A stretch of DNA of 64,000 nucleotides from positions 25,399,001-25,463,000 of the forward strand of contig NC_133064.1 in assembly GCF_048771995.1 (NCBI RefSeq), given 5' to 3'. This DNA comes from Taeniopygia guttata (taxonomy: Eukaryota > Chordata > Aves > Passeriformes > Estrildidae). How positions within the stretch are numbered: the first letter of the stretch is position 1; every line of letters begins with the position of its first letter. The notes under the pieces were generated by a model. That model was not told the DNA's origin and did not search any database. It saw only the letters and a list, made by a program, of their open reading frames with translations. This document shows, piece after piece, positions 22,329 to 52,601 of this stretch. The position numbers and the translations under genes were made by a program.

Positions 22329-23087
22329 ATGATGAGGGCAACTTTTAATTCAAATGAGATTGTACCGAAGGATATTACTGATTTATTTAAATGTTTACTA
22401 ACACCTTCTGAATATGAGATATGGGAAAATAGATGGAAGTTGGCTTTAACAGCAGTTTTAAAAGAACTACAACAAACACCCAGTGAGGCCAATGATAATG
22501 ATGGTAACCCTATCACAATAGATCATCTATGCGGCACAGGTGACTGGCACTGTCCAGAAAAACAAACTTGAGTGCTATCTAAGTTGGTTTTAGATAGAAT
22601 CTGTAATGCTGCAGAAAAAACATTGTATCAATTACCAATAACTGAGGCTAAGGGCAGCTATCTTAACATTAAACAGTTTCCTTCAGAGAGTTTTTTACAG
22701 TTTGCGGATCGCTTGAGAACACAAGTTGAAAGACAGGTGCAAGATCCTATGGTACAGACAGAGCTGGTTAAAGAGATGGCTCAGAGCAATGCAAATGAGA
22801 CTTGCCGCAAAATTATCCTCAGCCTTCCTCTCGACCTATCACCTAGTCTCACTCAGATGATTGACGCCTGCACCAGGAGAGCAGAGCTGTTTGATACCCC
22901 TGACAGAAATACAACATCTGCACAACTACAGCCTACTGCCACAGCCCTACCAGGTCTAAGGAGGCAACTAATGTCATCAGACCAGCTGCAGCACATCATC
23001 TGCCTCCATTGCAGGAAACCAGGACACTTCGCCAGAAACTGTCCTCAAAACCAGAACCAGAGAAAGTTCAACAAACAAAAAAACTGA
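22329..23087 (+). pseudogene. gag: Provirus B gag (capsid C-terminal part and nucleocapsid)
   Basis: The frame runs from mid-capsid to nucleocapsid with one in-frame TGA (22569-22571). The major homology region is seen as FPSESFLQFADRL, followed by a helical region and the CCHC knuckle CLHCRKPGHFARNC near 23000-23045. Only one knuckle is evident. Matrix and the capsid N-terminal domain are missing, lost where the inverted G-family piece sits. It would have formed the viral core; in this state it cannot make a full Gag. Confidence 0.85.
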
Positions 23088-23278
23088 GTGTACAGCACGT
23101 GCCCTCTGCTAATACAATTACACACAAAGATATAAATATAGCGGGACACACACAGGAAAACACCTCTCTCTTAACAAATAAGGGGGAGAACAGGACTCAT
23201 GGTGCGGGAGGGCAGAAAAATAAAAATGTCAGATGTTCAACTAACAAGGTTTGGCAGCTGCTAGGCTGACCTCGCCTA

Positions 23279-23950
23279 GTGACTGCCAAAGGGTTTCATT
23301 TCAGATCCACTGATTGGGAAGTCATTATAGTGGACCTGTCAAACAGCTCACAGGACCGGAAGGCATACCAAATGGAACCAGACAGTGAGTATTTTGTCAT
23401 TGGAGATACAGCACACACACCTTCAGAGATGGAGATAGCTCCCACAACTACTAACGGAAATATATAAAACCTTATGCTGTTGACATGCTGTTCGCACCCA
23501 CCATTTTACCTAGAAAAGGGGCAAATTTTGGCCCAAGCCATTCCCATCCCAGTAGAAATAAGAGTAGAAGGAAAATCGCCAGAAGTCTACTGGGCAGAGG
23601 TAGTGGGAGATGATAAACCCTCGATGGCATGCAACCTAGCCCATGGGTCAGAGCACCTTCATGTAGAAGGGGTTCTGGACACGGGCGCAGACATCACGGT
23701 AATACCTAAGACCATGTGGCCATCACATTGGGAGTTACAACCTGTGGCAGGCAAACTTCAGGGCATAGGAGGAACCACATTGGCAAAGATTTCAAAAAAC
23801 GTTGTGCAAATTGAGGGACCTGATGGGAAATTGGCAAGTGTTCGTCCATTTGTTGCAGACTATAAGGCTCCTCTGTGGGAGAGAGACACCATGTCCCAAT
23901 GGGGAGTACAGTTGATCATTCCTAGGACACCCCAGGATTTTTGGAAATAG
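23279..23950 (+). pseudogene. pro: Provirus B dUTPase remnant and protease
   Basis: A dUTPase-type C-terminal segment (PFYLEKGQILAQAIP, about 23500-23545) precedes an aspartic protease with the active-site motif LDTGADITVIP near 23680-23710 and a later LQGIGG flap-like stretch. The dUTPase-protease order is typical of betaretroviruses. Stops at 23465-23467 and frame changes break the upstream part, while the protease stretch itself (23474-23950) is open. It lies between gag and RT, as expected for the pro gene. Confidence 0.8.
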
Positions 23951-23985
23951 CCACGATGGCGTGCCCTGCCCACAAGTTAAAGTGA

Positions 23986-24744
23986 TTGGATAACAGCCCA
24001 AGGTGGGTAGCACAGTGGCCTTTGAGTATCGAGAAACTTGAGGCACTTGAGAAACTTGTGGAGGAACAATTGGCTCAAGGACACATACAAGAGACAGATA
24101 GCCCTTGGAATTTCCCAGTCTTTGTAATAAAGAAACCTGGGAAGGACAAGTGGAGGCTGCTCCACAATCTTCGAGAAATAAACAAAATTATAGAGGACAT
24201 GGGTCCACTCCAACCAGGGATGCCTAGTCCAACAATGCTCCCTCGAGATCGGCAATTGGCTGTCCTAGATATCAAGGACTGTTTCTTCCAAATTCCATTG
24301 CACCCTGAAGATGCCGCAAGGTTCTTGTTCTCGGTCCCTACCATCAATCGGGAAGCCCCAATGAAACGCTATCACTGGAAAGTTTTGCCCCAAGGTCTAA
24401 AATCCAGTCCTTTCATATACCAACAATACGTAGCCTCGCTACTGTCTCCAGTACGTGCAGAGAGAAAGGATGCCATCATCCTTCATTATATGGATGATGT
24501 GCTTGTGTGTGCTTCCAGTGACTCTATACTCCAATACATGCTTGACCTAGTGGTTGAGATTTTAACCTCTGCTGGATTTCAATTGCAGAACAAAAAAGGT
24601 CAAAGGATGCCATCTTGGAAATACCTGGGTATGGAGATCTCTGCAAGGACCATTGTCCCCCAGAAATTGGAGATCAGTTGCAACCCCAGAACATTAGCAG
24701 ACCTCCACTCTTTATGTAGATTTCTGAATTGGGTAAGACCCTAG
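23986..24744 (+). pseudogene. pol: Provirus B reverse transcriptase, polymerase domain
   Basis: Open for 252 codons. It shows WPLS-EKLEALE-LVEEQL at the N-terminal fingers, a WRLLHNLREIN block, LDIKDCFFQIPL with the first catalytic Asp, LPQGLKSSPF, and the active-site YMDD (near 24490). Betaretrovirus/ERVK-like. It ends at an in-frame TAG (24742-24744) within the thumb. The polymerase fold looks complete up to that point, but no continuous Pol can be made. Confidence 0.9.
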
Positions 24745-25587
24745 CTAGGCCTCACAAATGAGGATCTAGACCTTCTCTTCAATTTATTGAAGGGGGAGAG
24801 GGAGCTGGCCTCCCCCAGGGAACTGACCCAAGAGGCAAAGACAGCAATCAAAAAGGTACAGAAGGCCTTGTAAGAGAGGCAGGCACATCGGTGTGACCCA
24901 AATGTGCCTTTCAAGTTCATTGTTCTAGGAAACCTGCCACACTTGCATGGGTTGATTTTCCAATGGATCCAGGAGCAGAAGGATCCACTCTTGATCATGG
25001 AGCGGGTTTTCTTCTCGCACCAAAGATCCAAGACCATCACTAAGCCACAAGAACTAATAGAAAAGCTGATTTGGAAGGCCAGGGTGAGATTGTGCGAATT
25101 AGCAGGGTGTGACTTTGCATGCATTCACCTCCCAGTCAGGCTTTCTGAGGAGGGAAGGAACTCTCCTGAGAGACTGACCAAAGGGATGTTTGAGCACTTG
25201 CTCCAGAGCAGTGCCAGTCTCCAATTATCTCTGGAAAGCTACAGGGGACAAATATCAGTCCACCCCCCATCTCACAAGTTGTTCAATGAGGAATTCCACC
25301 TTATTCCTCGAGAGAAAAGGAGTCGGACAGCACTCAAGGCTCTCACAGTGATCACGGATGCATCTGGGGCTTCCCACAAGTCAGTGATGATTTGGAGAGA
25401 TCCACAGACTCAGCATTGGGAAGCTGATGTCGAGCTTGTGGAGGGATCCCCCCAGGTGGCTGAACTGGCTGCAGTGGTAAGAGCTTTTGAGAGGTTCTCT
25501 GAGCCACTCAACTTGGTGACAGACTCTGCCTATGTGGCTGGAGTAGGAGTAGCGTCCAGGGCAGAGCAGGCTGTGCTCAAAAAATAG
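24745..25587 (+). pseudogene. pol: Provirus B RT connection and RNase H
   Basis: Continues the RT reading with frame breaks up to 24903, then an open run of 227 codons. RNase H signals are VITDASG (first Asp), ELAAVVRAFE (Glu) and NLVTDSAYVAG (Asp), spaced as in retroviral RNase H. It ends in TAG at 25585-25587. Integrase remnants follow. Confidence 0.8.
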
Positions 25588-34274: not shown

Positions 34275-34375
34275 ATTTAAAAAAAAAGAAAAAGGAAAAA
34301 GAAAAATGAACAATGTAAAAAGGGAAAATTTTGAACAATGTTAAAAGGGAAAATTTTGAACAATGTTCAGTGTCC
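34275..34375 (-). repeat. Short tandem repeat near provirus C 3' end
   Basis: Two consecutive copies of an AAAAGGGAAAATTTTGAACAATG-like 25-bp unit, preceded by A-rich sequence, between integrase and LTR. Confidence 0.65.
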
Positions 34376-35330
34376 ACTCGTGGAGGAATCATCAGAGTGA
34401 TCACGCACGTCATCTGCCTCTGAGTCATCACTCAATGATTCATCCACTTGATGACTTTCAGTTTGGTCATGGTTTCCATTTTGCCTGTCGGCCAGATTCT
34501 GTCTCTGTGGTCGCAGGTCAGGACGAACACACTTTGAAGGTACCCAGCGTACCCCAGTATCTGTGGATACACACGCATATCCATGCCCCAAAGCGATAAG
34601 GTCATAGGGACCTTCCCACTGTTTGGTGACTAAATTCCGCACTCGAACCTTCGCTCGAGGCTGATGTGTCTCGTCCAAAGTCTGCAATGAAAGGTCATGA
34701 TTCAAAATGACAGGGTTATTTGAATTCTGCTGCACCGTAAGATAATTGATAGTGTACAAAGCCTTTTCCAACCAACTGTGCGGGGTTTCATCCTGCATTC
34801 CCCGTTTTTGTTTTTGATGAATCCACTTCAGAGTACCATGAGTGCGTTCTACAATAGCTTGACCAGTTGGAGAATGAGGGATACCGAACTTGTGTGACAC
34901 ACCCCACGACTGCAGGAACTTCCACACCTGCTGCGATGCATAAGCAGGACCATTGTCAGTTTTCACAGCAGAAGGTATGCCCAGAACAGCAAAGGCCTGA
35001 CTCCAGTGGGCAAGGACATTGTGGGCCTTTTCTCCAGTGTGAACAGAAGCCCACATCGCAGAGGAGAACGTGTCCACATGTGACATGCACATACTTGAGC
35101 CGGCCAAACTCGGCAATCTGGGTAACATCGGTCTGCCAAAGCTCCAATGACTTAAGGCTTCTGGGGTTTACCCATGCCAGCAAAGGCGCAGCAAGTGCGT
35201 GACAGTCATCACACGACTTGACAATGTCACGAGCCTCAGTTGGCGTCAACTGAAACTGCTTCTGCAAGGTATGTGCGTTCTGATGGAAAAACCCATGTGA
35301 TGCCTTGGCCTGCGTGAGTGTATCAGGCTG
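34367..35330 (-). pseudogene. pol: Provirus C integrase
   Basis: The N-terminal zinc domain is visible as His-x3-His (HQNAH) and Cys-x2-Cys (CDDC), near 35290 to 35205. The core has TDVTQI (first Asp), VKTDNGPAY (second Asp) and QAIVERTH (catalytic Glu), and the C-terminal domain shows QWEGPYDLIALG and RWVPSKCVRP. One frameshift near 35080 separates the zinc domain and first Asp from the rest. Otherwise the 34367-35128 part is open for 253 codons with an Asp/Ser-rich tail, so the integrase is unusually well kept for an element of this age. Confidence 0.85.
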
Positions 35331-35780
35331 AGGTGCTACCCACACTGGGTTAGCTAACTTGTCAGCCCTTGCATTACCTTCCGCTAAAAACCCTGGCAAA
35401 TTGGTGTGAGTCCTTACATGCAGAACATAGTACGGATGAACCTGGGCCTGAATGGCACACCACAAGGTCTTCAGTAAATGAAACAAGGCAGGATAACTGA
35501 CCTCCTTCAAAACCAAATGACCCAACTGCTGTGCAAGGTCAGCCACATAGGCAGAATCTGTGACCATAAGGTTCCTGGGAAAATTTCTCAAATGCCATGA
35601 CAGCAGCCCTTAATTCAACCAAATGGGCTGATCCATCCTCATGACCTTCCAGAACCTGCCACTAAGATCCATCCCTCCAAGTAGCAATGCCCTTCCCTGT
35701 CCTCCCCGAACCGTCAGTGAAGACAGTGGGTCCTTGCACTGGCTCCTGACTATTTTTGGGCCGCAAAGAGATTTTTGTGT
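35331..35780 (-). pseudogene. pol: Provirus C RNase H
   Basis: MVTDSAYVADL and VRTHTNLPGFLAEGNARADKLA mark the third and fourth catalytic regions. Upstream the Glu/Asp regions are degraded by stops around 35600-35780. Confidence 0.75.
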
Positions 35781-35783
35781 ATT

Positions 35784-37000
35784 TCACCACCTGCAGTAGC
35801 TTATGGCTGGGCAGATGATAAGTGATCTGCCCTGAAATTTTTCCAGAGCACTTTGCAGGGACACACAGTGTGCAAAGCTCCAGTCAAAGTCCTCCCGCTG
35901 TACCGGGAGTATGATCTTTGCAGGATCCGCACCCATCAATTGCAAATACCGTGGCCAGCAATTGATTATTAAGTGAGCAATTAGCTCAAACAATGTGATT
36001 GCCATCTTCTGCGTCTGATGGGGCAGGAAAACCCATTCCAAGATGTGCAAAGAATTGGACCATTTGTCACTCCACTGACCAATGATGCCTGTGGGATGCG
36101 AATCTGGAGTGGTAATGAACACAGTGACATCAACAGAAGGATCAATGTGATTAACCTGGAAGCAGAAATAGCTTGCTGAACCTCCTCCAGCACCTGACGT
36201 GCCTCAGGGGTCAGTGTGCAAGGCAACTTTAAATTGGAGTCTCCCTTTAACAAATCAAACAGAGGAGATAGTTGTGTGTTGGTCAGTCCCAAGTATGGAT
36301 GTAACCAAGTGGTGGCACCTACCAATTTCTGGGCATCATGCAGTGTCTTCACCGAATGCACAAATTGCACCTCCTGGTGTCAGATTTTCCGTTCCAGAAT
36401 TTTGACCCCCAAATACATCCAAGGAGGTTGTTGTTGAACCTTTTCTGGAACCACCTGCAGCCCATGAGAATGCAAAGCATCGAGCAACCGAGGCTGTATC
36501 CTCAGCAACTCATCCTGGAAGGACGCAGCCACCAAAATGTCATCCATATAATGATATAGATGCACATCAGGAAACTGCTTGTGAACTCCAGACAATGCAT
36601 GGGCCACATACCATTGGCATATGGCAGGACAACTTCGCGCATTCCTTGGGACAAAAACTTCCATTGATATCGCTGTGCGGGCTCAGCATTATTGATTGCT
36701 GGCACCGAGAAGGCAAATTTTGGTCTGTCATCAGGATGCAAAGGAATTGTAAAAAAACAATCCTTCAAATCCACAAGGATCGGCCAATCTGCAGGAAGCA
36801 TGGTAGGCGATGGCATGCCCGCCTGCAATTTTCCCATGCTTTCCATCATGTCATTGACCTTTCAGAGGTCTTGTAACAACCTCCATTTCCCAGATTTTTT
36901 CTTGATGCAGAAGACAAGAGTGTTCCAGGGACTGTTAGAAGGCTCTAGATGACCCTGGTCCAACTGCTCCTGCACCAGGTTTCGAAGGGTGACTAATTTG
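35784..37000 (-). pseudogene. pol: Provirus C reverse transcriptase
   Basis: Includes [17 protein letters not shown] (first catalytic Asp) near 36755, the active-site [12 protein letters not shown] near 36540, LGVKILERKI, then thumb/connection with ATTWLHPYLGLT and LSPLFDLLKG. At least two frame changes (near 36640 and 36370) and several stops break it. The order and motifs are betaretrovirus-like. Confidence 0.85.
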
Positions 37001-37169
37001 TCTTGAGGGAGGGGCCACTGGTTCTCTCAGATGGGTTTGTCCACCAGCCACTGTAAAGGAGGCGTGGGACACTCTGCACCCTTCATCACAGTGGCCCCCA
37101 TCAAAAATCTGTCACAATGCGCATCCCCCACACGGATAGAACATACCTCCCCCAGAGGTTAAACCTAGT

Positions 37170-37424
37170 TTAAGTAACATAAGGCCGAATCATGGTCGTC
37201 TGTCCCTCTGGGTTCGCTATCAGCACAGGCTGCTGGCTCACGTAGCAACGCGCTGTTCCTCTCAATCCCACAATAGGCATCTCCACCAGATCCAAGGGCC
37301 ACTCCAGGGGCCAGGCGGCAAGGGAGAGAACTGTGATATCCACGCTGCTGTCAATAAGCCCACGGAGACGAATCTCCGGCAGCGACGCACCAGGGATGGA
37401 CAGGGTACACAGCATCTCGGGATG
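37170..37424 (-). pseudogene. pro: Provirus C protease
   Basis: An aspartic protease fragment with LRGLIDSSVDITVLS at the active site (Asp-Ser-Ser instead of the usual Asp-Thr-Gly), then PIVGLRG flap-like and NPEGQTTMIRPYV blocks matching the protease of provirus B. The active-site change suggests inactivity; it may be decay. Its N-terminal end is separated by the solo LTR at 37425-37864. Confidence 0.75.
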
Positions 37425-37864
37425 TGTTGCTGTGTGAGATTGGCTCTGGGAGGACGCCTGCGGGCACGCACGGTGGGGGGGGGGGGGGGGAGACGGCGGC
37501 CGCTTTCCCCTCGTCTCTGCGAGGCTCAGTCCACGCGGGAACAGACGAAATGGCGACACGGGGCTCGGGTGCAAACACGTGTTTATTGTGGAGCGTGTTC
37601 CCCGAGACGCCGGGGGACCGAGCGGGGGCCTCGGTTATACTCCATGCCGGGGGTGGGGGGAACCTGAGCCGCGGCCAATGGGACGGGAGGGGCAGGGGAC
37701 AGGGGCAGGGAAACCCCGGGGACCGTGACGGGAAAGCCACGGGGGGGGGCAGGGACGGACCGCGTGGTGAGGGGAAAGATAAGGGAACAAAGGGTCGGGA
37801 CAAGGGACCGCGGGGGGAAGGGGGAGTGGGGGGGGGGGAAGAAGAGAAAATTACAAATCCTACA
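37425..37864 (-). mobile_element. GC-rich solo LTR in provirus C protease
   Basis: Exact 6-bp duplication GGGATG (37419-37424 and 37865-37870). Termini TGTTGCTG and ATCCTACA. On the minus strand: GAGTATAACC promoter box near 37636 and CACAATAAACACG poly(A) near 37580. Long G runs near 37470-37490, 37741-37749 and 37831-37839. High CpG content suggests it has not been long methylated or is young. Confidence 0.9.
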
Positions 37865-37870
37865 GGGATG

Positions 37871-38230
37871 TTTTCCAGTCAGGACATCAGACCAGTGAAC
37901 TTGAGGCGGCCCAGTGGGTGATGGGGGGGGTTTGGGTGTGGAAACCATGGCACAAATCTGTCTCATGAAACCTGCATCAATGAGTCCCATGTGCGCAATG
38001 ATACCCTGAAGGGTGGCACTAGATCTCCTCATAAGGAGAGCACTCATGCCCTCACCCAAGGGACCAATGGCATCCAGGGGAACCTTGTATATTTTGCAAG
38101 AATCTATGACAACTGTTGCTGCGGTGCAGACATCAACACCTGCTGAGCCACAGGTGCTGGCTGCAAGACTGCACGGGGACGGGGCCGTCAGGCGCCTCAC
38201 TCAAAAGAGTCCCGTCTGGGATGCGAAATT
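37871..38230 (-). pseudogene. dut: Provirus C dUTPase and protease N-terminus
   Basis: Shows dUTPase motifs in order: GSAGVDVCTA (motif 1), MRRSSATLQGI (motif 2 region), and GLIDAGF (motif 3, with the catalytic Asp), followed by WSDVLTGKHP, which continues across the solo LTR into the protease. dUTPase in front of protease is typical of betaretroviruses; the enzyme lowers dUTP during reverse transcription. The last dUTPase motif is not clear. Confidence 0.8.
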
Positions 38231-42310: not shown

Positions 42311-42660
42311 TGTTTGGGTAACAGGTGGTGGTGTAAGGAAAGAGTTAAACAAAGACCAATGTCAGCAGCAGCAGCAGCACCTCCCTCTGGGCAGTTCTGA
42401 GACAGAACTGGACTAACCAACAAGTTTCTAGTTCAACATAGAACGGTACACTCTTCATGCTCTATTGGCTATGGCTTTGGAGACAACAACAGAAGATGTC
42501 AAGAGGACAGATGTATTGTAGAACCGTGATTAAGACTGTAAGCTGTAACAAAAAAAAAAAAGAGCTCTTTAGGTTTAGAGATCTATATACATAGCACTTC
42601 TAAATAAATTTCAGATTCACTCGCATTTCTGCTGGTGTCTCTCATTCCTTCATGTATCAC
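42311..42660 (+). mobile_element. Element E 3' LTR
   Basis: Starts TGTTTGGGTAACAGG after a polypurine tract. CAGCAGCAGCAGCAG repeat near 42363-42378. AAATAAATTTCAG poly(A) near 42602. Ends about GTATCACA near 42660, just before provirus F's target duplication. Confidence 0.6.
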
Positions 42661-42665
42661 ATTCA

Positions 42666-42669
42666 GGTG
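42666..42669. repeat. Provirus F target-site duplication, left
   Basis: GGTG, repeated at 51925-51928 on the other side of the element. Four bases is typical of gammaretroviral integration. Confidence 0.85.
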
Positions 42670-43262
42670 TGTTATGAACGAGCACAATAGGCTTTCTAAT
42701 CCAATTAAAAAGATTTATTAATGGTAGGAAACGAAAGCAAATCAGCGCGCTGGGCAGCAGTTATTCCAACTACCGCGTTTTCGCGCCCCATTCCCCCCCA
42801 ACTTATTGGGTCTTCTCCTCCGGAAGTGTGACGTTCTGGTGTCTTTTCTGCGCAGGTGCACTCTGTTGCTAGGTGGTCGTTTTCTGCCTCTTGGTGGTCG
42901 TGGGATGAAGGCCAGTAGTCTTCCTCAAGGTTGTTCCTGTGATCTGGGAATTTTCTCAAAACAAGAAATGTTATCTCTAGGCACGTTTACTCGCATTCCA
43001 CAAGATTACATGTTTTGCTAAGTCTGTAACGGAACTGTCCTTGAAGATATTCGCTCAGGTGCTTTGATGCCTAACAACCTCAACTCCCTAAATTAGTTTC
43101 AACTCCCTAAAACAGTGTGTAACGAAGTTGTCCTTGAGAGATATTCTGGAATGCCTGGCAAAATGAGAACATGTTCAGACAAGTGAAAACTCTAAGTGAA
43201 AATTCTATTTTATAGATGTGAAAACTCTATATTATGAACAAAAAGGCCTTATTTTCCTAACA
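42670..43262 (-). mobile_element. Provirus F 3' LTR
   Basis: 593 bp, TGTTATG ... CCTAACA. Poly(A) signal AATAAA on minus at 42714-42719. It differs from the 5' LTR only at 42784 (C) versus 51446 (T) by eye, a CpG-type transition. A clear TATA box could not be fixed. Confidence 0.95.
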
Positions 43263-43266
43263 ATAT

Positions 43267-43277
43267 CCCCCCTTTTT
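43267..43277 (-). promoter_or_regulatory. Provirus F polypurine tract
   Basis: AAAAAGGGGGG on the minus strand, four bases before the 3' LTR, immediately after the env stop codon. Confidence 0.9.
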
Positions 43278-43280
43278 ATT

Positions 43281-45374
43281 TTAAACCTCTTTTTGTTCAC
43301 TAAAGCGCTCTAATTCCCTTTTGCTTAATTCTAAATAATCTTCAGTTTCTACTTCGCTAAGTTTTACCATCATTAAATGTGCAGCTTCTAATCTATTTTT
43401 CACTAGTGTAATAAGCTTGTTAAGAATACATGGCCCAAAAGTAAGTACTAGAATTAGTAAAATTACTGGTCCTGCAAGGGTGGATAATAGAGTGGTTAGC
43501 CAGGGAGAATAGGTAAGCCAGGATTCATACCAGCTCTGCTGGGATTCTCTTTCTCTTTTTCGTTGTTCTATTTGTTTGCGTAATTCAGCCATCGTGTCTT
43601 TTACAATACCCGTGTGATCTACATAAGTGCAGCATTCTTCCTGCAAAGCAACACAAAGCCCCCCCTGCTGTAAGAATAACAAATCTAATCCCCTTCGGTT
43701 TTGGAGGACTACCTCAGAAAGGGATTTCACTGATTTAACTAGTTCACTTATGGCTTTATCTATTCTACTCAGATCTTCATCTACAGATGTGCGCAGAGCT
43801 TTCATACCCTGGTTTTGACTCACTAAGGAGGCAACCCCTGTTCCTACTCCTGCTCCTCCTAAGCTGAGCAAAATTGCTACCGTTAGTGTTGTAAGTGGTT
43901 CCCTTTTAGCCAGGTAGTGTTCAGGGGTCATTTGATGTTCTAGTACGTATTCTTTTGGATGGTATACGATTCTGGGGATTATTAGAACTTGAATGCAGAA
44001 ATCTGAATTATTAAAGGCTTTTACCGATAGGCAGGGTGTAACTCCAAGTTGTTGACATACCCATTTAGTATTGACTGCTGGCATAAGCCAATCAGAAGGC
44101 TTGTTTGTTTTGTTAATGCTTATTGTCGTGTTGCAGAGGTGTTGCATATCTGCTGGAACCTTCCCTACACACCTTCCTTGTCCACTAACCTGGGACAGTG
44201 TAATGCCTGAAACACTATCTCTTCCCTTTCGCCAGAGACACTCCTTTGGATTTGTACCATTTATTTCTCTTGCCTCAGATGTAATCCCAATAGCTTCATA
44301 AAAGGGTGGATTTATCATATAGCAAAGCCAACACCCCTTGGTTAAGTTAGGATAAGTATGATTCAAAACTCCAAAAGTAGCTTGCATAATTTTCCATAAG
44401 GTTGTATACTTCTGCACTAATATCTGAGGTTCTTGATCAATTTTGTTTGATTTTATAACATTATCTCTGGTTTTATTACTCTCCTTTAAATTATTGCTTA
44501 TTACTGGATTTGGGCCTATAGGACTAGGGTCATGTGGAGCTACCTCCTTTTTTATTTGTATCAGATTTCCTGGATCATGTCCTTCTATCCAATGCCTAAC
44601 CCCCCATGTTTTGCCTATTAACCATCCAGAATCACTTGGTTGAGTGACATTTAGGTAAAGAAAGGTGCAGTTTCCAAGTAAGTTTTTCCCAGTCCAAGGC
44701 CACTCTCGTGGTCGTTTACACCCTGCTGGTCCATGCCCTACCTTTAAATATTTGTCTAATCCTCCACCCGGAGCCCACGCTGATGCTATTGTTTCACAAC
44801 CCCAATAGGCGTAGTAATAATGTCTAGGGTAATTACAGTATTGCTTCCCTGGGTTCGAGGCAGGGCACATATAGAAGCTTGTTAAATTTAACAGCTGCCC
44901 GCATTTTAAACTTTGAGTTAAATCACAAATCCCAATCTTAAAGCTCGGTGCTCCAGGTCCCGTTATTGTCTGTAAAATATGACGGGTATCGTGATCCTCC
45001 CATCTGCTTAAGGTCCATTTAAAGGGTTCATGTATATTAACTGTGGCACTCTGGAGGGGAAGCCATACAAACATAAAAACCCGTAGGATTGAGTGATACG
45101 CACTGCAGGGGAGGATGTTACTTATCATGCTCAGTTTTACATTCCCATTTTCCCTCATTCCGTTGTCACCATTCTCATACCCATGATGATTTACATTCTT
45201 TTTCAAGGTTTGGGAGGGCCTCTCAACCCCACTACCTACCTCTCTGTCTCGCCTGTCAACTTGGTTGCTACAAGTTACAGGGTAAGCCATCTTCTCGACA
45301 GCAGAGATATTCTTCAGGGGTGGGATCGTTCCCTCTCTCCCACTTTGACCTCCGGGAGTTCCAGTTTTTCGCAT
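43281..45374 (-). CDS. env: Provirus F Env polyprotein (gammaretrovirus-like), intact
   Basis: 697 codons without a stop. The likely signal peptide spans residues 83-110, after an unusually long polar leader overlapping the upstream frame; Met83 (45128) or Met73 may be the true start. The surface subunit has many Cys and N-glycosylation sites and a CWLC motif (348-351) of the gammaretroviral disulfide-exchange type. A KR cleavage site (490-491) precedes a hydrophobic fusion peptide (about 498-517). The TM subunit has a CX6CC motif (574-582) after an immunosuppressive-domain-like stretch, a membrane anchor (about 625-650) and a tail with a YLEL motif (680-683). In the family Env mediates receptor binding and fusion. 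Expression from this locus is unknown. Confidence 0.92.
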   Translation of the reverse strand: MRKTGTPGGQSGREGTIPPLKNISAVEKMAYPVTCSNQVDRRDREVGSGVERPSQTLKKNVNHHGYENGDNGMRENGNVKLSMISNILPCSAYHSILRVFMFVWLPLQSATVNIHEPFKWTLSRWEDHDTRHILQTITGPGAPSFKIGICDLTQSLKCGQLLNLTSFYMCPASNPGKQYCNYPRHYYYAYWGCETIASAWAPGGGLDKYLKVGHGPAGCKRPREWPWTGKNLLGNCTFLYLNVTQPSDSGWLIGKTWGVRHWIEGHDPGNLIQIKKEVAPHDPSPIGPNPVISNNLKESNKTRDNVIKSNKIDQEPQILVQKYTTLWKIMQATFGVLNHTYPNLTKGCWLCYMINPPFYEAIGITSEAREINGTNPKECLWRKGRDSVSGITLSQVSGQGRCVGKVPADMQHLCNTTISINKTNKPSDWLMPAVNTKWVCQQLGVTPCLSVKAFNNSDFCIQVLIIPRIVYHPKEYVLEHQMTPEHYLAKREPLTTLTVAILLSLGGAGVGTGVASLVSQNQGMKALRTSVDEDLSRIDKAISELVKSVKSLSEVVLQNRRGLDLLFLQQGGLCVALQEECCTYVDHTGIVKDTMAELRKQIEQRKRERESQQSWYESWLTYSPWLTTLLSTLAGPVILLILVLTFGPCILNKLITLVKNRLEAAHLMMVKLSEVETEDYLELSKRELERFSEQKEV

Positions 45375-45927
45375 TTAACTGTGGGGTGTCGCACCTGAGC
45401 CTTTTGACTAATTTGCGACACTTGACTTGGACTATATCCGTGAGGAATGGACCTAGGGGTTCATTGGATGGGTAACAGTGGAATTCAGGGTTTATTCCTT
45501 TTACGAAAATCTCCCACCACTCAGGGGATCCTTTAATCAATTCCCGAGTGGCAACCTTGTAATTTAGTACTTCAGAGGTCAATTTGCGCTGCTCCAGCCA
45601 GCAGCGTTGACATACACTTTTTGGAGCTCTCCCCTTTCTGCAGTGAGCCCACCACAATCCTTTACAGATTTTGCAGGAAAAACAGGCAAAAGGGTAACAA
45701 TGACAATCTAACCAGCTACACTTTACTCTAATACTTTGATGTTCAGCATGGCCCTCCCCTTCCCAAGGTTTCTGCTCTTTTTCAAGTCGGATGAACCGAT
45801 AAAAGGGCTGCTGGGCTGAATCCTCTAGACGTTTACAGTATCCTGGGGGTTTTGTTTCTCCCACCAGTTGTACTTGCAGTCCCCAGTTATCCCCAACCCA
45901 AATGTCCTTAGAGTTGATAGTGTTCAT
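45268..45927 (-). CDS. Cysteine-rich 219-codon frame between pol and env, function unknown
   Basis: Open from an ATG five bases after the pol stop codon to a stop inside the env leader (107-bp overlap with the long env frame). It is not a standard gammaretroviral gene. There are sixteen cysteines, nine clustered at residues 70-109 (70, 75, 77, 82, 85, 88, 96, 106, 109) with His76 and His95, a pattern that could bind zinc. Basic patches follow (CRKLVKRLRC at 170-179; SRRSKWER at 191-198). There is no signal peptide or membrane segment. Its position resembles that of accessory genes in complex retroviruses. It could be a regulatory protein, a captured host domain, or a chance frame; its intactness beside a broken pol favours real coding, but the insertion is young, so intactness is weak evidence. 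Confidence 0.6.
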   Translation of the reverse strand: MNTINSKDIWVGDNWGLQVQLVGETKPPGYCKRLEDSAQQPFYRFIRLEKEQKPWEGEGHAEHQSIRVKCSWLDCHCYPFACFSCKICKGLWWAHCRKGRAPKSVCQRCWLEQRKLTSEVLNYKVATRELIKGSPEWWEIFVKGINPEFHCYPSNEPLGPFLTDIVQVKCRKLVKRLRCDTPQLNAKNWNSRRSKWERGNDPTPEEYLCCREDGLPCNL

Positions 45928-45932
45928 GAAAA

Positions 45933-46430
45933 TTATTTGTAAGTCCTTTTTACTGTTAACTTTAAATCCCCTGGCTTCCCATCAATTTTCCAGCTCGTTT
46001 CCCTGGAAGCTGTATGGAATTGAGTTGGATCCACCGGCCCCTTTATTCTGCTAGCATGAGTCCATCCCTTCTCTGCTGTGCGGACTGCGGAGTCAGTGGT
46101 GATTAAAACCAGGTATGGTCCGTCCCACTTTGGGGTGATTGAATCTTCCTTCCAGCTTCGGATGAGGACCCAGTCGCCGGGTTGTACCTGGTGTAACACA
46201 AGATCTAGGGGTGGTCTTTGGGCCCACATCCCCTTTTCCCATAACTGTTTTTTATATTTCATTAAAGTGGTTAAATATTTATTAATACTTTGATCAGTAA
46301 TGTTAGGATTAGTTTGAACTTTTTCTAGGGAATAGGGCATCCCATACAACATTTCAAATGGGGACAGTCCTATATCAGCTCGTGGCTGAGTTCGAACATT
46401 TAATAATGCCAACGGCAGACATTTTATTCA
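45933..46430 (-). pseudogene. pol: Provirus F integrase C-terminal part
   Basis: Starts after an in-frame TGA (46428-46430) and encodes the last helices of the core and the C-terminal domain: PRADIGLSPFEMLYG, QVQPGDWVLIRSW, KWDGPYLVLITTDSAVR and VDPTQFHTAS. Ends with TAA at 45933-45935. In sequence with the preceding fragment but separated by a stop, so full integrase is not made. Confidence 0.9.
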
Positions 46431-48156
46431 GGATAGTTTAGTTTCTAGTACTAATTTGGTGAGTTGTTTCTTAATTTCTCCATTCATTCTTTCTACCCTC
46501 CCCGAACTCTGTGGATGCCAGGGGGTATGTTGTTCCCATTTTATGCCCAGAGCTTGTGCTAGCATCTGTTATTTTTGAAGTAAAATGGGGGCCTTTATCA
46601 GAGTCTATCGTCTCTGGGACCCCATATCTAGGTATTACTTCTTCCAGCAAGGCTTTTGTTACTGTCCGAGCTGTCTCCCTGGCAGTGGGGATTGCTTCCA
46701 CATAATGTGTTAAATGATCCACTATAACCAAAAGATATTTCAGTCTCCCTACCTTGGGGAGCTCAGTAAAGTCTACTTGCAGATTTGAAAAGGGCTTCTT
46801 TGCCACTGGCCTCCCACCCAGGGGCAGTTTCCTTAGGTTTTTCCTGTTTACCCGTAGACAGGTTGGACAACTCCTAGTAATCCCTTTCGCTAAGTCATGT
46901 AGGCCCACCGTCATGTAATGGGTGGCAAAGTGATCCACCAGTCCTTGAGCGCCCCAATGCGTTCTCTGGTGTAATTTACTGAGCATCCGCTGAGCTATGG
47001 CTCTAGGTAGAACTTCCCTCCCATCCTTTAACAGCCATTTCCCTGATTTCTCTTTTATTCCTAATTTTGTAAGCTTCTCCTGTTCTTCTATTGTAAATAT
47101 CAGCTTATCCTGGGTAGTCGACTCAGGGTCTTTTGGGGTATCTACAAGGTCTTTCCTAACTCCTTCACTTAAGGTTAGTGTTTTAATAATTGCAGCTTTC
47201 TTTGCCTCATAATCTGCCGCATTGTTACCCCTACTCCGGTAATCCATTCCCCGTTGATGCCCTTTTAAATGGACCACCGCTATCCTTGTAGGGCCTCTCA
47301 AAGCCCTTAGGAGGGCTACTATTAGCTTCTGATGTATTAAGTCCCTTCCCTGTGAGTTCACGAGGCCCCTTTCTTCCCATAATTTCCCAAAAGTGTGTAC
47401 CACCCCGTACCCATATTTAGAATCTGTATAGATGGTCCCCTCTTTTCCTTCTAATAGTTCCAAGGCTCTTAGGATAGCGTATATCTCGCAGGCCTGGGCT
47501 GACCATGTTTTGTCTAGGGCTCCAGATTCGATTACTTCTAGGTCAGGCCCCCCCACTATGGCATATCCTGATCTTCTTTGACCCTCGACTACTCTGGAGG
47601 ATCCATCAACAAACAATTTCTCTCCAGTTTCTAATTCCTCTTCTTCTAGGTCAGGTCTAATTTTAGTTTGTTCTTCTATAGTGATTACACAGTCGTGCAT
47701 CAGTGATTCAGTTTCGGGCTCTCCGAAAAGGAAGGAGGCTGGATTTTGCAGAGTGGTGGTTTCTAAGGTAAAATTAGGGGTTTCTAATAAAATCCCTTCA
47801 TATTTCAGGAGCCTGGCATCAGATATCCATTTATCTGCTTTCTGTTGCATCACACTCCGTATGTTATGTGGAGTTAATACTTTTAAAGTAGCATTAAAAG
47901 TGATTTTCCGTGACTCTTCTACTAGTGTTGCACACCCTGCAATTATTTGCAGACAGCTAGGCCATCCCCTACTCACGGGATCTAGGATTTTAGATAGATA
48001 GGCAATAGGTTTCTTTTTCCCTGCCCAATCCTGAGTAAGTACCCCGTACGTTACCCCATCTGTGGTATTAACAAATAGAAAGAAGGGTCTATTTAGGTCC
48101 GGGAGGCTCAAGACTGGAGCGTGGACTAAGGTCTCTTTTAATTCTTGAAATTTAGA
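46431..48156 (-). pseudogene. pol: Provirus F RT connection, RNase H and integrase N-terminal part
   Basis: Continues pol after the TGA at 48157-48159. It contains APVLSLPDL and PIAYLSKILD in the connection, and RNase H with LFVDGSSR (Asp), ACEIYAILRALELL (Glu), GTIYTDSKYG (Asp) and a late NNAADYEAKKAA block. The integrase zinc domain has His-x3-His (HQRTH) and CPTC, and the core has VDFTELP (first Asp) and IDSDKGPHF (second Asp). A frameshift near 46565 moves the reading to another frame before the catalytic Glu; that frame continues to the TGA at 46428-46430. Confidence 0.9.
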
Positions 48157-49485
48157 TCATTCTTCTTCTGTCCACTTAAGATGACCATCCTGGGTGAGTT
48201 TGTGATATAAAAATCTTGCTTTCCCACTATAGTTTTCAATCCACTGTCTACAATATCCCGTAAGTCCTAATACTTGACGAATTTGTCGTTTATTTTGTGG
48301 TAGAGGGAGAGACAGAATTGCTTGCACCCGGTCTGGGTCAATTCTCTTTTCTCCCTTTTTCAAATAATGTCCCAGGTATTTAACTTCCTCTTCTACAAAT
48401 TGTAACTCCGCTTTGGAGACTTTTAACCCCTTGGATCCTAAGTAATTTAATAACTTGATACTCTCCTCCCGGACTTTGTCTTCTTCGCTCCCTGCTATTA
48501 ACAAGTCATCCACATATTGAATTAGTTTCACTTCTGAGGCTGTCTTATAATCTTGTAAAACTTGTTCTAGGGCTTGCCCGAATAAATTGGGGGATTCCGT
48601 AAACCCTTGGGGTAACACAGTCCACCGAAGTTGCTGCCGCCTTCCTGTATCAGGGTCTTCCCACTCGAAGGCAAAATAATCTCGACTAGACTCGTCTAGA
48701 GGGCAAGCCCAAAAAGCATCTTTCAGATCTATGACACTATACCACTCGTTCTCAGGTCCTAGTTTGCTTAAAAGAGTATAGGGGTTTGCCACCACTGGGA
48801 ACCGGGCTACGGTTCTCTTATTGATTTCCCTAAGGTCATGCACCAATCGGTAGGATCCATCTGCCTTTTTTACTGGCAGGATCTGGGTATTGAAAGGCGA
48901 CATACATGGTTCTAGCAGTCCTTTGTTTAACAGCCTTTCAACTTCAGGTTTTAACCCTTTCCTCCCTTCTAGTGAAATTGGATACTGTTTTATTCTTACC
49001 GGGACCTCGGGATTCCTGATTTTTACTGTAAATGGGGTTATATTTAATTTGCCCACGGTTCCTGGATTATACCATACTTCAGGGTTTATTTTCTCTTCGT
49101 CTTCTAAACGGAGGGGGCAGAGTCTAATCTTTAACTCTTTTTCTACTACTTCAATTTGAATTCCTAATTCAACAATCAAGTCTCTCCCTAACAAATTGTA
49201 GTCCGCTTCAGGAACTAATAGGAAATCACCCACCCCCATCTTAGTTCCTGATTCTACCATCACCTCTTTAATAATTTGTACTTCAAATGGTTCCCCCTTA
49301 GCCCCTATTACCGTGGCTGTCTGTTTTGATAAATTACAGCCCTGAGGCAGGAATTGAATAGTAGATCTCTCTGCCCCCGTATCAACCAAGAAATTTATTT
49401 CCTGGCTCTGGGGACCCACCTTCAATTTTATCAAGGGCTCTTTTTGATGTTTCCCGGTCCCCATAAAATAGAGCCCCTGACTCCC
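48157..49485 (-). pseudogene. pol: Provirus F protease and RT polymerase domain
   Basis: In frame with gag across the UAG at 49486-49488. Counting from the ATG at 49464, protease has VDTGAERS (27-34) and LLGRDL (91-96). RT has RLVHDLREIN (206-215), VIDLKDAFWACPL (244-256), LPQGF (284-288), active-site YVDD (317-320) and LGLTGYCRQWI (399-409). It ends at an in-frame TGA (48157-48159) in the connection region, about 435 codons in. In the family this region makes the protease and DNA polymerase of the virion; here only a truncated product is possible. In the family, readthrough pol needs no separate start codon. Confidence 0.9.
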
Positions 49486-49488
49486 CTA
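49486..49488 (-). promoter_or_regulatory. gag-pol UAG readthrough site
   Basis: The gag stop is TAG, followed in the same frame by GGG AGT CAG GGG and an uninterrupted protease frame. This matches the arrangement of gammaretroviruses, where a purine-rich spacer and a downstream pseudoknot promote about five percent readthrough (family knowledge). The pseudoknot was not checked. Confidence 0.85.
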
Positions 49489-50904
49489 TTCGATTTTGAA
49501 CTCCTCCTCGTCCTTAAGCCTCCTCCTGCACTCCTTTTTGAAATGTCCCTTCTTACCACAATAATAACACACCCTTTCTCCTACCTTTCCCTTGTCACCC
49601 TCCCTATTCCGAGTGACTCTCTTCTGTCCTTCCTCCGCTCGCCTGCTTTCCCTTACCGCAGCAACCATCATTTTCACCTGCTTCTTCTGACTTTCATCCT
49701 CTCTTCGGACATAAACCTTCTGTGCCTCTCGCAATAATTCCTCTAAACCCCTGTCCTGCCAATCATCCATTTTCTGTATCTTTCTCCTAATATCATCCCA
49801 GGACTTAGAGACAAACTGGACTTTAAGAATTGCCTGTCCCATTGGGTCATTCGGGTTTAACCCCGAGTACAGCTGAAAACTTTTCCTTAACCTCTCCAAC
49901 CATTCAGTGGGGGTTTCATCCTTCTTTTGTCTGTCATTAAATGCTTTATTTATGTTCTGGCCCCTAGGAACGGACTCTTTTATGCCATCAATTAATATGG
50001 TCCGAAAGTCCCGCATGTTAGCTCTATGGACCGGATCCTGGTTATTCCAATTGGGATTCTCGAGAGGCCATTTGGTATCGGCCCGCTGCTGGGCATGTGC
50101 AGGTTGAGCATCCCAGACCCGCATACCAGCAGTTCTTATCATGTTCTTTTCCTCAACCGTGAATAAAATGTTAAGTATAGATTGTAATTCCTCCCAAGTG
50201 TATATATTAGGACCTAAAAATTGATCCACCCGCTCTGCCACGCCCAGGGGGTCTTCTAACAAATTTCCCATCTCCTTCTTAAAGTCTCTAACATCCCCTG
50301 AACTCAAGGGCACCGAAATGAATCCAATCCCCGGCTGTGGTCCCCCCATGGGCATTTCCCTTAAAGGAAATAGTTTGCCTCGCGTCTTACTTCGGGTAAG
50401 AGGACCACGCGAGCCTGAGGGTTGATCAGAGTCTGAGTCTGATTCTTCCTCATCTGATTGTGGAGGAGGAGGGGGTGCATTCGGCGCAGGGGGAATGTAA
50501 GGCGGGGGTGCAATAATTACTTCTTCCGCTCGCCCCTTCTTTTTCTTTCCCCCTGAAACCTCCGAGAGTTTAAACACGAGCACCTCCGGTTTTTCTGTCC
50601 AGACTCGGGCATAGGCACTCTCCTCAGGGTTAGGAGGTTGTTTAGTGTTTATCCAACCATTTAACAGTTGCTTTACCCAGTCTTCTGAGGACCCAAAGAT
50701 GGGCCAAAAAACACCTTTAGAAATCTCTTGTCCTCCCCATACTTCTATGCAATAGTGTATCATCTTTGCCTTATCCTTCCCAGGTGCTCCTGGAAGGTGC
50801 TCCCAATTTGTCAGCATAAACCCTAAGGGACTATCCTTAGGAATTGGGGGAAGTTTTACCCCCACCGGGGAGGGGGATTTACTCTTACTCTTCCCCTGCC
50901 CCAT
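49486..50904 (-). CDS. gag: Provirus F Gag polyprotein, intact
   Basis: 472 codons from the ATG at 50904; an upstream in-frame ATG at 50928 would add eight residues. The 50904 start is preferred because it gives Met-Gly-Gln, an N-terminal myristoylation context. Numbering from 50928: matrix to about 130, a PPPY late-budding motif at 141-144 in a Pro/Ser/Asp-rich linker, capsid from about 185, the major homology region near 335-362, and a single nucleocapsid CCHC knuckle CYYCGKKGHFKKEC at 454-467, as in gammaretroviruses. A charged coiled-coil-like stretch lies at 395-445. Gag forms the particle; the frame looks functional. Confidence 0.93.
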   Translation of the reverse strand: MGQGKSKSKSPSPVGVKLPPIPKDSPLGFMLTNWEHLPGAPGKDKAKMIHYCIEVWGGQEISKGVFWPIFGSSEDWVKQLLNGWINTKQPPNPEESAYARVWTEKPEVLVFKLSEVSGGKKKKGRAEEVIIAPPPYIPPAPNAPPPPPQSDEEESDSDSDQPSGSRGPLTRSKTRGKLFPLREMPMGGPQPGIGFISVPLSSGDVRDFKKEMGNLLEDPLGVAERVDQFLGPNIYTWEELQSILNILFTVEEKNMIRTAGMRVWDAQPAHAQQRADTKWPLENPNWNNQDPVHRANMRDFRTILIDGIKESVPRGQNINKAFNDRQKKDETPTEWLERLRKSFQLYSGLNPNDPMGQAILKVQFVSKSWDDIRRKIQKMDDWQDRGLEELLREAQKVYVRREDESQKKQVKMMVAAVRESRRAEEGQKRVTRNREGDKGKVGERVCYYCGKKGHFKKECRRRLKDEEEFKIE

Positions 50905-50928
50905 GTCCTCCGGAGTACCTTCAATCAC

Positions 50929-51310
50929 TCACGACAGCACAATCGCTTCCCCTGGTTCGTGGCCCAGGCCCTCGCGAGCTCTGGAAAACGCACTACTTAA
51001 GGGTCCACAATCACTTGGAGAATCCGGCTGCCGGTTCTCCTCTCATTCATACACACACTCGCCGTACTCCGGGATCCCGAACCCCGCCCGGACGGGTCCC
51101 TCTATACTTACGCATCCTGTGTCTTCGTCCGGACTTTGTGCACAAAATTTAAGGGGTACCCTGGGCCCGCTTCCCTTTTTTTTTTTTTTGCTTTCGCTTT
51201 CTAGGCTTTTAGGTTCGTCGGTCGGGATGAGGGTAGAAACCCCGGTCTGAGTCCGCTCAAAGGAGCGGAATCGTGGCGCCCCTCTCAGAGAGAGATTCCC
51301 CAGATCCGCG
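50929..51310 (-). other. Provirus F leader
   Basis: CpG-rich leader between primer site and gag, with an A-run on the minus strand (T-run near 51177-51190). It should hold the packaging signal and splice donor; neither was identified with confidence. Confidence 0.5.
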
Positions 51311-51328
51311 ATCCGAGTCACGGCACCA
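51311..51328 (-). promoter_or_regulatory. Provirus F primer-binding site, tRNA-His
   Basis: On the minus strand TGGTGCCGTGACTCGGAT, three bases after the 5' LTR, is fully complementary to the 3' end of vertebrate tRNA-His as I know it. Confidence 0.9.
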
Positions 51329-51331
51329 AAT

Positions 51332-51924
51332 TGTTATGAACGAGCACAATAGGCTTTCTAATCCAATTAAAAAGATTTATTAATGGTAGGAAACGAAAGC
51401 AAATCAGCGCGCTGGGCAGCAGTTATTCCAACTACCGCGTTTTCGTGCCCCATTCCCCCCCAACTTATTGGGTCTTCTCCTCCGGAAGTGTGACGTTCTG
51501 GTGTCTTTTCTGCGCAGGTGCACTCTGTTGCTAGGTGGTCGTTTTCTGCCTCTTGGTGGTCGTGGGATGAAGGCCAGTAGTCTTCCTCAAGGTTGTTCCT
51601 GTGATCTGGGAATTTTCTCAAAACAAGAAATGTTATCTCTAGGCACGTTTACTCGCATTCCACAAGATTACATGTTTTGCTAAGTCTGTAACGGAACTGT
51701 CCTTGAAGATATTCGCTCAGGTGCTTTGATGCCTAACAACCTCAACTCCCTAAATTAGTTTCAACTCCCTAAAACAGTGTGTAACGAAGTTGTCCTTGAG
51801 AGATATTCTGGAATGCCTGGCAAAATGAGAACATGTTCAGACAAGTGAAAACTCTAAGTGAAAATTCTATTTTATAGATGTGAAAACTCTATATTATGAA
51901 CAAAAAGGCCTTATTTTCCTAACA
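51332..51924 (-). mobile_element. Provirus F 5' LTR
   Basis: 593 bp, TGTTATG ... CCTAACA on the plus strand, GGTG following at 51925-51928. Poly(A) signal on minus at 51376-51381. Confidence 0.95.
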
Positions 51925-51928
51925 GGTG

Positions 51929-52601
51929 CATCAGCATCCATCCCTGCTCCATTCCCTGTCACCACAGAATTCAATCAGATGCAGCCAGTGACTTTCTACA
52001 GCTCACAGTAGGTCAAGTCCCTTACAAACAGGGAGACACTAGAAGCAGCCTTGCTGTATTGCAGCTTGTTATGGCAGTGACAATGTTGTCTCATTGTGCT
52101 TTACCACAGGGTCTGATAAGCGTTTCTATTTTTAACGTGCATCTGTCTAGTCTTATAGCTATAAAACTCATGTCACAAATTCACTGTAAAAAGAAAGGAG
52201 GAGGGCATTTGTTATCACAATGTTTGTCCTTTGGAGCAACCAATACACTTTCTCAAGCCCTACTTCCTGGGATGTGGCTGGACATTGCCTGCTGATAAGA
52301 AGTAGAGAATAAATCTTTTGTTTTCCAGTGTTTCCCTGCACAGCCTTTGCTTTTCTTTATTAAACTGCCTTTATCTCAACCCAGGCTTCATCTGAGGAAA
52401 ACACAAACAGGGAAACAGAGGATGATACCCTGGGGGCTTCATGCTGGCCTAGACTGGTCATGTCTGAGGGAGGTGGAGGTAGGGACCACAGCAGTAGGTG
52501 ATGGTCAAAAACTGTTCACTGATTGAGGGGCACAGGTAATGCTTATAGAGCAGAAGCACTGCATGTCCAGAGAAACCTGTTAGGAAGCCAAGGTTTGCTG
52601 T
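51929..52601. mobile_element. Unassigned flank with an LTR remnant
   Basis: 52060-52400 looks like a plus-oriented LTR remnant: AACCAATACAC, GAGAATAAATC and CTTTATTAAACTGCCTTTATCTCAACCC. The ends are not defined. The rest is unassigned. Confidence 0.4.

What the first reader, a model, noticed from the sequence alone, without database searches (positions are those of the whole stretch)
45268..45927. Uncharacterised cysteine-rich frame between pol and env of a recent gammaretrovirus
Simple gammaretroviruses have only gag, pol and env. Here a 219-codon open frame begins five bases after the pol stop and overlaps the long env leader by 107 bp. Nine cysteines within 40 residues and basic patches suggest a zinc-binding, nucleic-acid-binding or trans-acting protein. 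I recognise no family. Seen: the open frame, its spacing and composition. Known: complex retroviruses carry accessory genes at this position. Inferred: an accessory gene specific to this lineage.
Basis: partly seen in the sequence, partly recalled or inferred. Interest (0 to 1): 0.88.

Follow-up and report, generated by a model that had tools for sequence, protein, structure and literature searches.

The report
Conserved accessory gene in gamma-like retroviruses
A kind of virus usually described as carrying only three genes has, in this genome, a fourth, cysteine-rich gene between its enzyme and envelope genes, kept by selection across several old virus lineages, so it is probably a real accessory protein whose role, likely regulatory, is still untested.

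Summary
The frame is real: 219 codons, minus strand, window 45927-45268, in a young gamma-like provirus (593-bp LTRs, one mismatch). It is not a chance frame. The same genome holds 41 full-length copies of this lineage, 37 without a stop, and homologues in about six further lineages (27-41% identity). Of 20 loci re-read, the integrase end precedes it in 19 and Env follows in 14. Between lineages, dS is at least 1.4 or saturated in 42 of 45 pairs. Within the lineage this frame, and neither other sense frame, shows excess synonymous change (31 against 18.9 expected, P=0.001). A Cys cluster around YPF is kept, with C-to-H swaps at two positions, as expected of zinc ligands. Other lineages add an arginine-rich tail; the window's lineage stops before it. 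No relative was found in Pfam, NCBIfam, PDB, IMG/VR or GTDB contigs. Best reading: an accessory gene family of gamma-like retroviruses, probably a zinc-binding regulator of viral RNA. Function is untested, the host unnamed, and other vertebrate genomes could not be searched.

The parts
45268..45927 (-). accessory frame (called X here), 219 aa, ATG at 45927, stop at 45268-45270
45601..45720 (-). Cys cluster, residues 70-109: C70 C75 C77 (YPF) C82 C85 C88 (W92) C96 C106 C109
45268..45374 (-). stretch shared by X and the start of the env frame (env +1 relative to X in the window)
45232..45270 (-). remnant of the arginine-rich tail of other lineages, behind in-frame stops (CNL*QPS*QARQRGR*)
   Evidence: sequence
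45933..46412 (-). end of pol (integrase C-terminal part, MLVIN_C)
46471..49464 (-). protease, RT, RNase H, integrase; open pieces 49464-48157 and 48111-46471, broken in this copy
49486..50904 (-). gag (Gag_p30, zinc knuckle), ATG at 50904, pol in the same frame after the gag stop
43281..45374 (-). env, 697 aa, gamma type (TLV_coat); its C-terminal 239 aa match MLV-related Env and syncytin-2 best in PDB
51332..51924 (-). 5' LTR, 593 bp
42670..43262 (-). 3' LTR, 593 bp
51311..51328 (-). primer binding site TGGTGCCGTGACTCGGAT (tRNA-His by recall)
   Evidence: sequence; assignment recalled
51925..51928 (-). target-site duplication CACC, 5' side
42666..42669 (-). target-site duplication CACC, 3' side

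Best explanation
X is a true accessory gene of a group of gamma-like retroviruses that have endogenised in this genome. SHOWN: the frame is conserved at the same place (after integrase, before env) in about seven lineages of this genome, has been under purifying selection between lineages and within the young lineage, has a start codon that aligns at the pol end in several lineages, and keeps a Cys/His cluster. In one pair of element groups X and the start of SU are much closer at synonymous sites than the integrase end. INFERRED: the cluster binds zinc; the protein is soluble and goes to the nucleus or to RNA (no signal or membrane segment, net basic, arginine-rich tail in other lineages); it is made from a spliced mRNA whose acceptor lies in the integrase C-terminal region, X being an upstream cistron or an alternative product of the env message. 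MOST LIKELY WORKING: a small zinc-stabilised RNA-binding regulator that acts on viral RNA (transcription, export or splicing), in the manner of Tat, Rev or Rec but unrelated to them by sequence. The window's lineage has lost the arginine tail and would have to rely on its internal basic patches (VKCRKLVKRLRC, NSRRSKWER).
For:: 157 matches in the one genome searched (150 of 499 candidates scored); 41 full-length copies of the window's lineage at 95-100% aa identity, and many more distant matches at about 29-51%; 88 distinct loci fall in 9 best-hit groups and, on a tree of 46 of them, about 7 lineages; in 42 of 45 pairs dS is 1.40 or more or not computable while dN is 0.19-0.83; the best-measured pair (L016, L022) has dS 0.39, dN 0.14; over 40 other copies frame 0 has 31 syn / 35 non / 5 stop where 18.9 / 46.7 / 5.4 are expected (P=0.001); sense frames 1 and 2 show nothing (P=0.76, 0.82); the non/syn ratio against expectation is 0.40 in X (13 of 40 copies usable), 0.71 in the integrase end (35 of 40), 1.03 in the env leader and signal stretch (39 of 40); integrase end upstream in 19 of 20 loci, SU or TM downstream in 14 of 20; cluster found in 85 of 88 loci; C82 is H in 9, C85 is H in 5; the arginine-rich tail is open in 30 of the 34 other-lineage loci (of 45) whose tail matched the pattern; for L090 against L093 pS is 0.75 in the integrase end, 0.27 in X, 0.43 in the N part of SU; an acceptor-like site at -129 to -140 from the X start in 9 of 17 rows and at the aligned place in 3 more.
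Against: No transcript, protein, zinc or RNA-binding data. The arginine-rich tail lies behind two stops in all 40 window-lineage loci where it was matched (of 43), so not every member needs it. The acceptor coincides with conserved integrase codons, and the window lineage lacks that AG; the leader has no strong donor by a crude score. The within-lineage signal is modest, is as strong among changes seen in one copy only, and stops are not depleted (5 against 5.4); in the first count one antisense frame scored 0.62 beside 0.51 for X. Four of 41 copies carry stops. Structure prediction from one sequence was uninformative. The closeness of X and SU could in part be constraint on silent sites and not recombination.
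Confidence: 0.5

Rival explanations
1. X is real but counters a host defence (in the manner of Vif, Vpx or Bet, recalled), using its zinc cluster as a protein-docking fold, and does not bind RNA.
For: The place between pol and env is that of vif and vpr in lentiviruses (recalled). The N-terminal part varies in length between lineages while the cluster is kept. The arginine tail can be lost.
Against: Basic patches, and an arginine tail in most other-lineage loci whose tail was matched; no relative in Pfam, NCBIfam or PDB to suggest a target.
Confidence: 0.3
2. X began as, or still serves as, part of an Env leader: a cleaved or alternative N-terminal piece of Env with its own function, as Rem and Rec are (recalled).
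For: In some other-lineage copies (L019/L089, L022, L024) the X frame runs on without a stop into the region of the env start; in L089 it reads through the start of mature SU in the env frame. In one lineage pair X and SU are much closer than pol at silent sites.
Against: In the window X and env are in different frames. Among 12 other loci with an SU match its frame relative to X is +1 in 5, +2 in 6 and the same in 1, so a shared frame is the exception, though indels in old copies blur this. The env-frame leader and signal stretch of the window lineage shows no constraint (24 non against 24.8 expected). X has no hydrophobic stretch.
Confidence: 0.1
3. A captured host gene carried as a passenger or signal protein, like KIT-ligand in CrocERV29.
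For: Capture between pol and env is on record (PMC4299795, abstract and passages).
Against: No Pfam, NCBIfam or PDB relative; spread through several old lineages; no hydrophobic signal stretch. A search for a non-proviral parent gene could not be run (genome search not answered).
Confidence: 0.08
4. A chance frame kept open by the youth of the insertions.
For: The window provirus is young (1 of 593 LTR differences).
Against: Homologues at 27-41% identity in other lineages, near-saturated silent sites, frame-specific selection, kept Cys cluster.
Confidence: 0.02

Closest known systems
ERV-Fc / HERV-H / HERV-W group and other gammaretroviruses
   Same: gag-stop-pol in one frame, MLVIN_C integrase end, gamma-type Env, 4-bp target duplication; the primer site reads as tRNA-His, as in HERV-H, by recall
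   Different: [quoted passage not shown] Here there is a fourth conserved gene.
Lentiviral Tat (recalled)
   Same: Cys-rich cluster, and in other lineages of X a short arginine-rich stretch
   Different: 219 aa, other Cys spacing, a long second conserved region (C170, C179, C209, C210); no match among PDB chains by sequence or profile
HERV-K Rec, MMTV Rem, JSRV Rej (recalled)
   Same: small regulatory product encoded next to or within the env start
   Different: Those lie in the env frame as part of its leader; X lies upstream in another frame in the window and is Cys-rich
Snakehead retrovirus ORF1, ORF2, ORF3 and 3'ORF (PMC12193657, abstract and passages)
   Same: orthoretrovirus with extra ORFs on subgenomic mRNAs
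   Different: ORFs of 52, 94, 76 and 205 codons, the last overlapping the end of env. No sequence comparison was made here.
CrocERV29 KIT-ligand (PMC4299795, abstract and passages)
   Same: extra frame between pol and env under purifying selection
   Different: recognisable host cytokine in one lineage; X has no recognisable relative and spans several lineages

Membership tests
Gamma-type retrovirus (class I ERV) | gag and pol in one frame separated by a stop | tested here: met
   the frames at 50928, 49464 and 48111 are in register
Gamma-type retrovirus (class I ERV) | RT nearest to MLV-type RT among solved structures | tested here: met
   first ten rows, E 2e-80 to 1e-66, are MLV/XMRV-type enzymes (partly by recall of entries); the next group starts at 2.5e-30
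Gamma-type retrovirus (class I ERV) | gamma-type Env (TLV_coat) | tested here: met
   (E 3.1e-117)
Simple gammaretrovirus | only gag, pro-pol and env | tested here: not met
   conserved fourth frame
Lentiviral Tat family | sequence or profile similarity | tested here: not met
   no Tat match in Pfam or among PDB chains
Lentiviral Tat family | binds a TAR-like RNA and raises transcription | not testable with these tools
   no experiment; the Rfam scan of 42600-52000 found nothing
Rec/Rem/Rej-type RNA export factor | encoded in the env frame as part of its leader | tested here: not met
   X and env are in different frames in the window and in 11 of 12 other loci with an SU match; L089 is a partial exception
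Zinc-binding protein | spaced Cys/His ligands kept across lineages, with C/H exchange | tested here: met
   pattern only, and the search pattern itself required the YPF-like triplet and W92
Zinc-binding protein | binds zinc | not testable with these tools
   single-sequence structure model unusable
Captured host gene | recognisable cellular homologue | tested here: inconclusive
   no Pfam, NCBIfam or PDB match; host genome search for a parent gene not answered

The most novel reading that the evidence does not exclude
A whole clade of gamma-like retroviruses is complex, not simple: it carries an old, family-wide regulatory gene with a zinc cluster and (in most lineages) an arginine-rich tail, a Tat/Rev-like solution invented independently and handed between viruses together with env.
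Probability: 0.4. Interest if true: 0.9.

Novelty: new variant of a known kind. Interest (0 to 1): 0.8.

Why it matters
Gammaretroviruses are the textbook simple retroviruses. A conserved accessory gene in several gamma-like lineages would show that this simplicity is not a property of the whole group, and would give a protein family with no relative found so far for the study of retroviral gene regulation or host defence. It would also bear on how gamma-like elements stay active on the contig on which 27 of the 41 full-length copies lie.

Tried and rejected
Chance frame: rejected. Known domain: Pfam and NCBIfam gave only weak matches, each to one of the 10 members of A1 (best E 0.021 and 0.058); PDB by sequence and by profile gave nothing I would accept (best E 0.012, best 1whn at E 0.057). 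Relatives in IMG/VR by X of two lineages, by an alignment, by protease-RT and by the C-terminal 239 aa of Env: none confirmed. Relatives in GTDB contigs by alignment: none confirmed. These scans need short exact patterns and see close relatives best. Rfam on 42600-52000: none. Splice sites: a crude score gave no convincing donor in the leader and several weak acceptors, so no splice map is claimed. Which gamma-like elements of this genome lack X, and whether a host parent gene exists, could not be answered because the genome search did not complete. An earlier idea, that env lies +1 to X in most loci, did not survive a recount: 5 of 12. Nothing that I saw describes this gene, but most subscription papers are not held, and one avian ERV survey that I asked for was not held.

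Full report
WHAT IS THERE. It starts five bases after the pol stop and overlaps the env frame by 107 bp. It holds 16 Cys, nine of them within residues 70-109, 35 K+R against 26 D+E, and no evident hydrophobic segment. I call it X.

SURROUNDINGS. X sits in a provirus on the minus strand, 51924 to 42670. The LTRs are 593 bp with one mismatch and are flanked by CACC on both sides. At recalled bird rates of a few 1e-9 per site per year one mismatch means well under a million years; that is a rough inference. Gag has Gag_p30 and a zinc knuckle, protease and RT follow in the gag frame after a stop, the integrase end matches MLVIN_C, and Env matches TLV_coat at 3.1e-117. RT is nearest to MLV-type enzymes among solved structures, and the C-terminal part of Env to MLV-related Env and syncytin-2. 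The primer site reads as tRNA-His by recall. In this copy pol is broken by a stop and a frame change; X and env are open.

X IS A FAMILY. One search of the window's own genome (1.14 Gb, 41 contigs) with X gave 157 matches, with 150 of 499 candidates scored, so counts are lower bounds. Forty-one are full-length copies of the window's lineage at 95-100% aa identity; these 41, chosen because they match end to end, have no indels, and 37 have no stop. A few further copies of the lineage are partial or broken and were left out of these counts (for example L082, L083 and two short matches). Twenty-seven of the 41 lie on contig C41, 33.8 of 1141 Mb. That resembles the ERV density reported for avian W chromosomes (PMC8310711, passages), but neither the host nor the chromosome was identified here. 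I hold 88 distinct loci: 43 of the window lineage and 45 diverged ones. The nine other members of alignment A1 are 27-41% identical to the window protein. On a tree of 46 rows (40 window-lineage rows and two short rows left out) they form about seven lineages: the window's; L009 with L020 and L048; L039; L012; L027; L016 with L022; and L035.

SAME PLACE. Twenty loci were re-read with more flank. The integrase end lies upstream of X in 19 of 20 and SU or TM of Env downstream in 14 of 20; both in 13. The start codon of X aligns at the pol end in the window and several other lineages, not in all. In the window env is +1 relative to X; among 12 other loci with an SU match it is +1 in 5, +2 in 6 and the same frame in 1, and indels in old copies blur the original arrangement.

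SELECTION. In 42 of 45 pairs of ten representatives dS is 1.40 or more or not computable, while dN is 0.19-0.83; where a ratio could be formed it is 0.11-0.57. The best-measured pair, L016 and L022, has dS 0.39 and dN 0.14. Very recent pairs have ratios near 1 (L016-L013; L103-L104), as expected after insertion. Within the window lineage I counted changes in 40 other copies against the window copy over the first 549 bases, with expectations from mutations redistributed among like bases, CpG kept apart. Frame 0 gives 31 syn, 35 non, 5 stop where 18.9, 46.7 and 5.4 are expected (P=0.001); sense frame 1 gives P=0.76 and frame 2 P=0.82. Changes seen in one copy only show it as well (22 syn against 13.9, P=0.006); those in two or more are few (9 against 4.9, P=0.03). 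Stops are not depleted. In the first, cruder count one antisense frame also scored low (0.62, with 0.51 for X). In a third count the non/syn ratio against expectation is 0.40 in X (only 13 of 40 copies aligned to both ends), 0.71 in the integrase end (35 of 40) and 1.03 in the env leader and signal stretch (39 of 40).

ANATOMY. The cluster C-x4-C-x-C-YPF-x-C-x2-C-x2-C-x3-W-x3-C is found in 85 of 88 loci by a pattern that fixes the YPF-like triplet and W and leaves most Cys positions free; C106 and C109 follow it in the window protein. C82 is His in 9 loci of the L035 group, and C85 is His in 5 loci of two other lineages (L027; L039). Exchange of Cys for His at two positions is what one expects of zinc ligands; binding was not tested. 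A second conserved region holds C170, C179 and the CC-R/Q-E-D-G motif. In other lineages an arginine-rich tail follows: of 45 other-lineage loci 34 matched the tail pattern and 30 of these have it open. In the window's lineage the same DNA follows the stop as CNL*QPS*QARQRGR* (one locus with two residues changed), in all 40 loci matched of 43. So the window's X is a shortened member without the tail.

X AND ENV AS A MODULE. L090 and L093 differ at 75% of synonymous sites in the integrase end but at 27% in X and 43% in the N part of SU; L092 gives the same picture. I read this as recombination near the pol-X border, with X travelling with env; constraint on silent sites in X could contribute.

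EXPRESSION. In 12 of 17 rows an acceptor-like ...CAG lies at the aligned place in the integrase end, 129-140 bases before the X start in the 9 rows where that start was the anchor. It coincides with conserved integrase codons, so its conservation proves little. The window lineage lacks that AG; nearby weak candidates exist. I claim no splice map.

HOW IT MOST LIKELY WORKS. A soluble, basic protein with a zinc-type cluster encoded beside env of a retrovirus is, by analogy with known accessory genes (recalled), most often a regulator of viral RNA or an antagonist of host defence. The arginine-rich tail of other lineages tips me to RNA regulation (0.5) over host antagonism (0.3). The lack of that tail in the window's own numerous and recent lineage is the strongest point against it.

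WHAT IS KNOWN. In the held open-access library, a study of ERV-Fc states that those elements, as with other gammaretroviruses, appear to encode no accessory genes (PMC4798954, passages). Extra frames are known in snakehead and walleye viruses (PMC12193657, passages), and a host cytokine lies between pol and env in a crocodilian ERV (PMC4299795, passages). None of the ten searches showed me this gene. No profile or structure library gave a relative, and no viral or prokaryote contig did. The protein database was off, so relatives in other vertebrates could not be sought: the gene may be known under a name that I could not see.

VERDICT. That X is a real, conserved accessory gene: about 0.97. 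That it binds zinc: about 0.8. That it regulates viral RNA: about 0.5.

Noticed in passing
window 22572-25587 (+): Fragments of a second retrovirus of another class: Gag_p24_C, zinc knuckle, protease, RT with RVT_thumb, RNase H.
   Followed up: no
window 34367-38200 (-): Further retroviral fragments: integrase with IN_DBD_C and Integrase_Zn, and a dUTPase-like frame at 37583-38200.
   Followed up: no
G000 contig C41 (holds the window): 27 of the 41 full-length copies of the window lineage lie on this 33.8-Mb contig, about 3% of the genome.
   Followed up: partly
L019/L089, L022, L024: In these copies the X frame runs on without a stop into the region of the env start.
   Followed up: partly
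L090 against L092 and L093: X and the N part of SU are far more alike than the integrase end at synonymous sites, a sign of recombination near the pol-X border.
   Followed up: yes
window 45239 (-): The best donor-like site of the stretch 44950-46700 (GAG|GTAGGT) lies just after the X stop, in the remnant of the arginine tail.
   Followed up: no
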